DNA of 64,000 bases, from the NCBI RefSeq assembly GCF_001830325.1, contig NZ_MHZG01000001.1, forward strand, positions 496,001 through 560,000, in the 5' to 3' direction. Below, piece after piece: positions 4,898 to 45,764 of this stretch. Below the pieces are notes generated by a model, which was not told the origin of the DNA, made no database searches, and worked only from the letters and a program-made list of their open reading frames with translations. Both the position numbers and the translations under genes were made by a program. Positions within the stretch are counted from its first letter, which is position 1. Every line of letters begins with the position of its first letter. Origin of the DNA: Polynucleobacter sp. GWA2_45_21. GTDB taxonomy: Bacteria > Pseudomonadota > Gammaproteobacteria > Burkholderiales > Burkholderiaceae.

Positions 4898-4946
4898 TGA
4901 AAAAATACTAACTACACACATATGGTTAAAAGTTGATGAACATCAA
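4898..4946 (-). promoter_or_regulatory. FNR-type activated promoter for dctPQM
   Basis: TTGATGAACATCAA (4933-4946) matches the FNR/DNR consensus TTGAT-N4-ATCAA at all ten defined positions. On the minus strand a TAGTAT -10 candidate lies at 4910-4905. The implied transcription start at 4898 places the box centre at exactly -41.5, the classic class II activator position. The resulting leader would be only about 14 bases and begin in the Shine-Dalgarno sequence. Site and spacing are seen in the sequence; regulation by an FNR-family protein is inferred. Confidence 0.6.
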
Positions 4947-5176
4947 GATTTCCGAAATGACTTATCAGCATTGCAATGCAACAAATCATGTTTTTTCCTG
5001 CTGAGTCAATGTAGAGCATATTGATCAAGACAAGGTCAGTACATTCCCTAATGCAGTGCATAAAGCGCACTTTTTTTGGGATGATGGAACTTCATGCTTC
5101 AATTTGGTGTCTGCAAGAATCTAAACTACCTTTACTAAATTAATTACTCATAACTGCAATAGGAGAAATACAAATA
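4947..5176. other. Intergenic region between the dctP promoter and the GGT-family gene
   Basis: With the dctP promoter this gap totals 292 bases. It holds an isolated TTGAT half-site at 5021, a weak hairpin with T7 (5055-5077) and an AGGAG ribosome site for the downstream gene. I see no convincing -35/-10 pair for the plus strand and no small ORF. Confidence 0.5.
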
Positions 5177-44168: not shown

Positions 44169-44597
44169 TTAGATCTCTAACGCTTTTGGCTGTTGAGCCG
44201 CATGCGGATGACTGGCGTCGCCATAGACTTTTAATTTCTTAATCATGGCATAACCTAGTGGGCCTTTTGGCAACATACCCTTCACAGCCTTCTCCAAAGC
44301 GCGACCTGGGAAACGATCTTGCATCTTGTCGAAGTTAGTCGAGCTAATACCACCTGGGTATCCGCTGTGACGGTAATAAATTTTGTTCAAGCCTTTTGTG
44401 CCTGTAACACGCAGCTTAGAAGAGTTGATGACAACAATGAAGTCGCCGGTATCAACGTGTGGGGTGTATTCAGGCTTGTGCTTGCCGCGTAGACGGAGTG
44501 CCACTTCACTGGCGACACGACCGAGGACTTTGTCCGTAGCGTCAATCACGAACCATTCATGCACTACCTCATGGGATTTTGCAGAAAAAGTTTTCAT
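44169..44597 (-). CDS. rplM: 50S ribosomal protein L13
   Basis: Early-assembling large-subunit protein. From the internal ATG at 44597 ([15 protein letters not shown]) the protein is 142 residues, the standard length; the track's extra eight residues are unlike any L13. It carries [25 protein letters not shown] and [11 protein letters not shown] hairpin terminator and candidate RNA lie 160 bases upstream on the same strand, raising the chance of leader-based control. Confidence 0.98.
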
Positions 44598-44756
44598 GAT
44601 TTCTAAAATTGTTATGGTCAAAAAAAATTACTCCAACCAAATTACGTCCACCTTGGCCCTGCTTATGTTTGCAAGCTCGCAGATTCTGCAATTTAACTGG
44701 TACAACAAATTACCGCTGACCGGCTCGGTAATCCAGTAAAGCCTTGAATTGTAACC

Positions 44757-44786
44757 CAAAAAAAACCCAGGAACGAGTCCTGGGTT
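44757..44786 (-). terminator. Terminator ending the candidate small RNA upstream of rplM
   Basis: A perfect 9-bp stem, AACCCAGGA/TCCTGGGTT, with a 5-base loop is followed on the minus strand by a run of T residues. No coding gene ends here in that direction, so it must close a non-coding transcript or act as an attenuator for rplM. Confidence 0.85.
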
Positions 44787-44859
44787 GGAATCCACCTATG
44801 TTTAAGTGGAGGAGACACTGGGAGGCATATCGATCTCTTATATAAGACTGACAGCCAAT
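44757..44859 (-). ncRNA. Candidate small RNA (or rplM leader), about 100 nt
   Basis: On the minus strand a sigma-70 promoter predicts a start near 44859 and a terminator closes at 44757. Between them are unpaired-looking C/U-rich stretches (GCCTCCCAG and GTCTCCTCCACTT), which resemble the anti-Shine-Dalgarno seed loops of many regulatory RNAs. A small hairpin, CCACTTAAACATAGGTGG, lies between the seeds and the terminator. There is no open reading frame of note. It could equally be an attenuated leader of rplM-rpsI, whose start is 160 bases downstream. Confidence 0.55.
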
Positions 44860-44865
44860 ATGGTT

Positions 44866-44914
44866 ATTCTACACAAAAAATATGGTGCAACGCAAGAATA
44901 TTGACCAAAATCAA
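44866..44914 (-). promoter_or_regulatory. Sigma-70 promoter with FNR-like box for the candidate RNA
   Basis: On the minus strand TTGCGT (44895-44890), 18 bases, then TAGAAT (44871-44866) forms a good promoter. Just upstream, 44901-44914 reads TTGAT-TTTG-GTCAA, one base off the FNR consensus. Its centre is about -48.5 from the predicted start, not a standard activator distance, so control by FNR is speculative. Confidence 0.5.
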
Positions 44915-45443: not shown

Positions 45444-45457
45444 GTATTGAGAGAAGT

Positions 45458-45764
45458 GCAGAGTCAATCGATAAGCCGGATTCTGTCGCCTAGATTTGCA
45501 TCTAGGGGCAATCATTCCTCTAGGCCGGCAGTTACCTGACGGCTCAAGCTCCCTACCCGCAGACTCAGCGGGACGCCTCATCGCCTGCTTACTTGGGATT
45601 GCTCCAGGTGGAGGTTACCGCGTTTCACCGTAACTAAATACGCTCGTCTCTGTGGCCCTATTCCTCACGTCACCGTGGATGGCCGTTAGCCATCACCCTT
45701 CCCTATGGAGTCCGGACTTTCCTCCCCCTCAATAAAGAGGCGGCGATTGCCCAATTGACTCTGC
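45458..45764 (-). ncRNA. rnpB: RNase P RNA (class A)
   Basis: Catalytic RNA of RNase P, which trims tRNA 5' leaders. On the minus strand the 5' end GCAGAGTCAATTGGGC pairs with the 3' end ATTGACTCTGC to form helix P1. The universal core GAGGAAAGTCCGGACTCC is present near 45726-45707, and the 3' part reads ACAGAATCCGGCTTAT. The length of about 307 nt fits a bacterial class A RNA. End positions are taken from P1 pairing and are approximate. Confidence 0.95.

What the first reader, a model, noticed from the sequence alone, without database searches (positions are those of the whole stretch)
44757..44914. Undescribed ~100-nt transcript upstream of rplM: small RNA or L13 leader attenuator
A full non-coding transcription unit is visible: FNR-like box, -35/-10, two C/U-rich anti-Shine-Dalgarno-like stretches, a hairpin, and a perfect terminator. 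It points at rplM-rpsI 160 bases on, so two readings compete: an oxygen-linked regulatory RNA analogous in concept to FnrS/AniS, or a ribosomal-protein leader that stops transcription. I do not recognise it as a named family.
Basis: partly seen in the sequence, partly recalled or inferred. Interest (0 to 1): 0.75.

Follow-up and report, generated by a model that had tools for sequence, protein, structure and literature searches.

The report
Known sRNA family, probable storage-granule control
The stretch encodes a small regulatory RNA of an already catalogued betaproteobacterial family that blocks ribosome-binding sites; new here is that its promoter, in many related species, carries the binding sequence of PhaR, the sensor of carbon-storage granules, which suggests a testable answer to what switches this family on.

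Summary
On the minus strand lies a complete unit: an FNR-like box (44901-44914), -35/-10, two anti-Shine-Dalgarno stretches, a hairpin and an intrinsic terminator, 160 nt before rplM. It is not undescribed: it matches Rfam RF02278, Betaproteobacteria toxic sRNA (51.8 bits, gathering score 50). The family includes B. cenocepacia ncS27/bdhR1 and B. pertussis S17, which act in trans on ribosome-binding sites. In Polynucleobacter the osmC-sRNA-rplM order is nearly universal, and many other Burkholderiales families share it. The leader-attenuator reading fails: the RNA ends upstream of a separate, conserved rplM -10. The oxygen reading is partly supported: the FNR-type box is conserved in 55 of 81 Polynucleobacter copies, but sits near -47, is missing from deeper lineages and persists in some genomes without FNR. 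Unexpectedly, the -35 region matches the published PhaR consensus TGCRNYGCASMA exactly. The site recurs at 57 of 79 Polynucleobacter copies and 29 of 62 other Burkholderiales copies (about 0 in shuffles), and at three of five phasin genes in this genome. I propose a PhaR-repressed, granule-induced sRNA with an added FNR-type input, analogous to rhizobial MmgR; this is inferred, not shown experimentally.

The parts
44901..44914 (-). FNR/CRP-family box TTGATTTTGGTCAA, centre about -47 from the predicted start
   Evidence: Present as TTGAYNNNNRTCAA in 55 of 81 Polynucleobacter copies; outer TTGA/TCAA invariant among these; shuffles give 0.2 on average
44883..44895 (-). PhaR-type site TTGCGTTGCACCA; its last 12 bases match TGCRNYGCASMA exactly; overlaps the -35
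   Evidence: Consensus from PMC6201568. Strict match in 57/79 Polynucleobacter and 29/62 other Burkholderiales copies (shuffle mean 0.06 for the Polynucleobacter set; 0.16 for the 80-copy set that contains the 62)
44890..44895 (-). -35 element TTGCGT
   Evidence: Sequence; conserved; the mapped B. pertussis S17 promoter has -35 TTGCAT, 17 bp, -10 TACTAT (PMC11722255)
44866..44871 (-). -10 element TAGAAT; transcript start predicted at about 44859-44861
   Evidence: Sequence and conservation; start not measured
44757..44860 (-). predicted primary sRNA, about 104 nt
   Evidence: Promoter-to-terminator interval; fold z -4.5
44757..44817 (-). RF02278 core (likely the processed form, about 60 nt, by analogy with S17S and ncS27)
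   Evidence: cmscan 51.8 bits, E 1.6e-7, full model 1-64
44819..44826 (-). first CU-rich anti-SD stretch GCCTCCCA
   Evidence: Sequence; mostly single-stranded in the fold
44806..44817 (-). second CU-rich anti-SD stretch TGTCTCCTCCAC (seed)
   Evidence: GTCTCCTCCA invariant in 31 diverse Burkholderiales copies
44764..44786 (-). intrinsic terminator stem-loop, U-tract 44758-44765
44748..44753 (-). separate rplM -10 (TACAAT) just after the terminator
   Evidence: Near-invariant in the genus, also in copies with unrelated upstream DNA
44172..44597 (-). rplM (L13), downstream neighbour
   Evidence: Pfam PF00572
45018..45443 (+). osmC-like gene, divergent upstream neighbour
   Evidence: Pfam PF02566

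Best explanation
This is the rplM-osmC-linked member of sRNA family RF02278. The RNA starts near 44860, ends at the terminator, and may be trimmed to about 60 nt. Its CU-rich single strand pairs with Shine-Dalgarno regions of many mRNAs (transporters and carbon/amino-acid uptake in studied relatives), probably with Hfq, and lowers their translation. Transcription is most likely held off by PhaR bound over the -35; when polyhydroxybutyrate granules form, PhaR moves to the granule and the sRNA is made. In the main Polynucleobacter clade a CRP/FNR-family protein adds a second, probably oxygen-related, input. Shown here: the sequence, structure, conservation and family match. From papers: trans action and RBS pairing in relatives, and PhaR titration. 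Inferred: PhaR and FNR binding at this promoter, and processing and targets in this species.
For: Rfam match. Conserved osmC-sRNA-rplM order in Polynucleobacter and many other Burkholderiales families. Invariant seed. hfq present. Relatives repress RBSs: ncS27, S17 with Hfq. PhaR site: exact consensus match, strict match in 57/79 and 29/62 copies against about 0 in shuffles and 0/94 in the adjacent rplM leader, usually containing the -35 at 17-18 nt from a -10-like hexamer. phaR (PF07879) in 79/79 good Polynucleobacter genomes. The same motif lies at 3 of 5 phasin genes and upstream of a pyruvate dehydrogenase E1-like gene in this genome, and is enriched 30 to 2 over the reversed control. ncS03/05/27 rise 4-8 fold in glucose medium. 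S17 is thought to be derepressed by an unknown factor. Rhizobial sRNA MmgR is directly PhaR-bound.
Against: No binding or expression data for this species. Twelve Polynucleobacter copies (L002-L006, L085, L087-L092) and about half of the other Burkholderiales copies lack the site although phaR is present in nearly all Polynucleobacter, so the link is not obligatory. Motif matching cannot exclude another regulator with the same TGCN3GCA preference. Biofilm and starvation also raise the relatives.
Confidence: 0.68

Rival explanations
1. The sRNA is mainly an oxygen-responsive regulator driven by FNR, working like FnrS/AniS.
For: FNR-type box in 55/81 Polynucleobacter copies with invariant half-sites. 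The genome encodes an FNR (CxxCx5C, later Cys, ETVSR recognition motif) beside a CcoG-like gene. Box-bearing genomes have a close FNR more often (47/55 against 10/26, p 4e-5; 17/26 if any homologue counts, p 0.05).
Against: Box centre near -47, not the class II -41.5. One box in 62 non-Polynucleobacter copies. Eight box-bearing genomes lack a close FNR, four of them near-complete with no FNR hit. The association is confounded by shared ancestry.
Confidence: 0.2
2. An RF02278 sRNA from an essentially constitutive or growth-phase promoter; the PhaR-like sequence is only a -35 preference or a site for another regulator.
For: Some lineages replaced the whole upstream region while keeping the RNA (L085-L092). 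PhaR binding is untested here.
Against: The palindrome extends beyond the -35 and matches the footprinted consensus; phasin genes of the same genome carry it.
Confidence: 0.22
3. An L13 leader attenuator that stops transcription before rplM.
For: It points at rplM 160 nt downstream and ends in a strong terminator.
Against: No L13 leader match. A conserved rplM -10 follows the terminator. The same RNA occurs at sites not next to rplM, such as L035, L036, L038 and paralogues. No anti-terminator pairing was seen in the fold.
Confidence: 0.04
4. A true toxin RNA, as the Rfam name suggests.
For: Family members inhibited E. coli when cloned (cited).
Against: Toxicity can be explained by off-target RBS pairing; S17S was barely toxic in E. 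coli. It is a conserved core-genome locus and no antitoxin was seen beside it.
Confidence: 0.03

Closest known systems
Rfam RF02278; B. cenocepacia double-hairpin RNAs ncS03, ncS05, ncS27 (bdhR1), ncS62
   Same: Full-length model match, two hairpins, same CU-rich seed. ncS27 lies between BCAL3348a and BCAL3349, and BCAL3348 is listed as a ribosomal protein gene, so it is probably the positional counterpart.
   Different: Longer 5' part (about 104 nt); one copy over threshold here against three to five in Burkholderia; FNR-type box added.
B. pertussis S17 / S17S (PMC11722255)
   Same: Seed and double-hairpin core; mapped -35 TTGCAT and -10 TACTAT resemble this promoter.
   Different: S17 lies by coq7; S17L is 190 nt; its level depends on the Bvg mode.
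S. meliloti MmgR (alpha-r8 family)
   Same: Short Hfq-dependent sRNA whose promoter has a PhaR(AniA) site bound in vitro.
   Different: Different RNA family; reported phasin targets, for which no convincing pairing was found here.
FnrS / AniS
   Same: An FNR-type box upstream of an sRNA.
   Different: No Rfam match to FnrS; box position and phylogenetic spread differ.

Membership tests
RF02278 Betaproteobacteria toxic sRNA | Covariance-model score at or above the gathering score of 50 | tested here: met
   51.8 bits, model 1-64/64
RF02278 Betaproteobacteria toxic sRNA | 5' CU-rich GUCUCCUCCA and two hairpins, the second a terminator | tested here: met
RF02278 Betaproteobacteria toxic sRNA | Inhibits E. 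coli growth when cloned | not testable with these tools
   Reported for relatives only
RF02278 Betaproteobacteria toxic sRNA | Expressed as a discrete short transcript acting in trans | not testable with these tools
   No transcript data for this organism
anti-hemB RF02837 | Score at or above 49.5 bits | tested here: not met
   31.6 bits
FnrS | Match to the Rfam family | tested here: not met
   No match at gathering score or up to E = 1
L13 (rplM) leader | Match to a leader family, or rplM lacking its own promoter after the terminator | tested here: not met
   No match; conserved -10 after the terminator
PhaR regulon | PhaR consensus in the promoter | tested here: met
   TGCGTTGCACCA = TGCRNYGCASMA
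PhaR regulon | PhaR binds and phaR mutation changes expression | not testable with these tools
   Needs EMSA and a mutant
FNR regulon | Box at a classical activating position (-41.5 or -61.5) | tested here: not met
   Box centre about -46.5 to -48.5 from the predicted, unmeasured start; FNR-dependent expression not testable here

The most novel reading that the evidence does not exclude
RF02278 sRNAs across Burkholderiales are, as a class, outputs of the storage-granule sensor PhaR: they are made when carbon is being banked as polyhydroxybutyrate and they shut down nutrient uptake. In some streamlined Polynucleobacter whose rplM-linked copy lost the site, a related RNA instead sits 59-60 nt behind a phasin gene (L097, L099-L102; the phasins of L099, L100 and L102 carry a PhaR-type site), so the link may have been rebuilt through the phasin mRNA.
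Probability: 0.6. Interest if true: 0.72.

Novelty: new member of a known kind. Interest (0 to 1): 0.5.

Why it matters
The RNA is known, but what controls the family was stated as unknown in B. cenocepacia and left to an unnamed repressor in B. pertussis. A PhaR site in the promoter would tie a widespread betaproteobacterial sRNA family to carbon storage, give a reason for its induction in glucose medium, and parallel the unrelated rhizobial sRNA MmgR. It can be tested in one gel-shift and one mutant.

Tried and rejected
L13 leader: rejected (no Rfam match, separate rplM promoter). FNR as sole control: weakened by position, clade limits and genomes without FNR. Gene-loss test for PhaR: uninformative, since phaR is in 79/79 good Polynucleobacter genomes. 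Phasin mRNAs as targets: no convincing pairing for the three motif-bearing phasins (-7 to -10 kcal/mol). Full-genome target search: only the sRNA's own locus matches TGGAGGAGACA exactly; the 17 sites with up to one mismatch were not clearly above the reversed control (11) and were not followed. RNAalifold covariation: weak, because the seed hairpin hardly varies and the terminator stem is shifted in the alignment. The ncS27 functional paper (PubMed 31464662) was not held; supplements were not available, so the published 'common upstream motif' of three B. cenocepacia copies could not be compared.

Full report
OBSERVATION. The 104-nt RNA folds better than all 200 shuffles (z -4.5).

IDENTITY. 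Rfam scores 44757-44817(-) as RF02278 over the full model, 51.8 bits against a gathering score of 50. anti-hemB and SdsR fall below their cut-offs. The sRNA is therefore not undescribed. Its relatives are the B. cenocepacia double-hairpin RNAs (PMC5688073, PMC4603805), four Herbaspirillum RNAs (PMC7011215) and B. pertussis S17 (PMC11722255). In those, CU-rich single strands are predicted to cover ribosome-binding sites, S17 works with Hfq and directly represses one target, and ncS27 overexpression slows growth.

CONSERVATION. The genus is Polynucleobacter: contigs of named Polynucleobacter records have the same lengths as genus contigs (for example 470130 and 389355). 86 of 101 genomes match at E <= 0.001 and 63 exceed the cut-off. 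Nearly all fetched main copies lie just upstream of rplM, mostly with osmC on the other side, and the order recurs in many other Burkholderiales families. In the order sample, 125 of 200 genomes match, some with up to 9 copies. GTCTCCTCCA is invariant in 31 diverse copies.

NOT A LEADER. A near-invariant TACAAT (44753-44748) follows the terminator in the genus, also where the DNA upstream of the sRNA is unrelated, and RF02278 copies occur away from rplM. rplM very probably has its own start and a separate, conserved leader of about 145 nt.

FNR BOX. TTGAYNNNNRTCAA is found in 55 of 81 Polynucleobacter copies (one of the 26 others is cut short by a contig end); shuffles give 0.2. Outer half-sites never vary while inner positions do. 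The genome has an FNR with the Cys pattern and ETVSR, and this box type is enriched genome-wide (37 sites against 3 for the reversed pattern). But its centre lies at about -47, only one of 62 non-Polynucleobacter copies has it, and eight box-bearing genomes lack a close FNR. Box and gene are associated (47/55 against 10/26 for a close FNR, p 4e-5; 17/26 for any homologue, p 0.05; counts made by hand, test), without correction for ancestry.

PHAR SITE. The -35 sits inside TTGCGTTGCACCA. The last 12 bases match the footprint-derived PhaR consensus TGCRNYGCASMA of Bradyrhizobium (PMC6201568) exactly, and fit the core of the R. eutropha palindrome YTKNTGCRNYGCANMAR (PMC12849132). Upstream of RF02278 copies the strict consensus occurs in 57/79 Polynucleobacter loci (looser form 67/79; shuffle means 0.06 and 0.38) and in 29/62 other Burkholderiales loci (looser 33/62). 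For the whole 80-locus set, which adds pattern-found Caballeronia and Polynucleobacter, it is 37 strict and 51 loose, against shuffle means 0.16 and 0.8. Between terminator and rplM it is 0 of 94. Copies share ancestry, so these counts are not independent events; spread over many families and several different distances from the seed argues for selection. In most motif-bearing copies TTGCNN lies 17-18 nt before a good -10.

POSITIVE CONTROL. In this genome the pattern TTGCNNYGCAMMA has 30 hits against 2 for its reverse. Three of the five phasin genes have it within about 100 nt of the start, as does, at about 130 nt, a gene with a Transketolase_N domain that reads like pyruvate dehydrogenase E1; pdhA is a proposed PhaR target in Bradyrhizobium.

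PAPERS THAT FIT. ncS03, ncS05 and ncS27 rise 8.0, 6.9 and 4.3 fold in glucose medium, and their control was called unknown. The S17 promoter has -35 TTGCAT and -10 TACTAT, is BvgA-independent in vitro, and is postulated to be derepressed in vivo. L038 has exactly TTGCAT-17-TACTAT with TGCATCGCACAA; that S17 itself has the full site was not checked. MmgR is a PhaR-bound sRNA promoter in S. meliloti. No held paper found links RF02278 with PhaR, but that search was small and subscription papers are missing.

SECOND RNA BEHIND PHASIN. Weak RF02278 matches (29-30 bits, below cut-off) in L097 and L099-L102 start 59-60 nt after a phasin stop codon, on the same strand, with the TGTCTCCTC start and a terminator. 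The phasins in L099, L100 and L102 have a TGCAGTGCAACA site upstream. Two of these genomes (G006, G027) are among those whose rplM-linked copy lacks the PhaR site. Homology is likely but not proven; the five are orthologues, so this is one event. The window's own phasin has no such RNA behind it.

TARGETS. Not resolved. Among 50 window genes the best seed duplexes are at an ammonium transporter (-21.7 kcal/mol) and a TRAP transporter DctM (-19.1). These are consistent with transporter targets in relatives but have no significance test.

VERDICT. A well-conserved member of a known sRNA family (about 0.97), acting in trans by RBS pairing (about 0.85), with probable PhaR control (about 0.7) and possible FNR-type input (about 0.5).

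Noticed in passing
window 4933-4983: An FNR-type box (TTGATGAACATCAA) and a PhaR-like site (TTGCAATGCAACA) lie 24 nt apart between a TRAP transporter operon (minus strand) and a divergent gene: the same pair of site types as at the sRNA promoter.
   Followed up: partly
L097, L099-L102, near the middle of each locus: RF02278-like RNA with terminator 59-60 nt behind a phasin gene, in Polynucleobacter with small genomes.
   Followed up: partly
L094, L095, L096, L098: A further RF02278-like RNA (AGTCTCCTCCATA, 31-37 bits) preceded by a recurring ACGCTTGT element, in varied gene contexts; may be mobile or repeated.
   Followed up: no
window 44598-44747 (-): The rplM 5' leader (about 145 nt) is conserved well beyond its promoter, for example ATCTGCGAGCTTGCAAACATAAGCAGGGCCAAGGTGGACG; a possible L13 autoregulatory leader.
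   Followed up: no
window 45456-45762 (-): RNase P RNA (RF00010, 241 bits), ordinary.
   Followed up: no
genomes G106, G151, G249, G206: Several Burkholderiales genomes carry 6-9 RF02278 copies, some in tandem within a few hundred bases (G106:C1:1646160 and 1646538).
   Followed up: no
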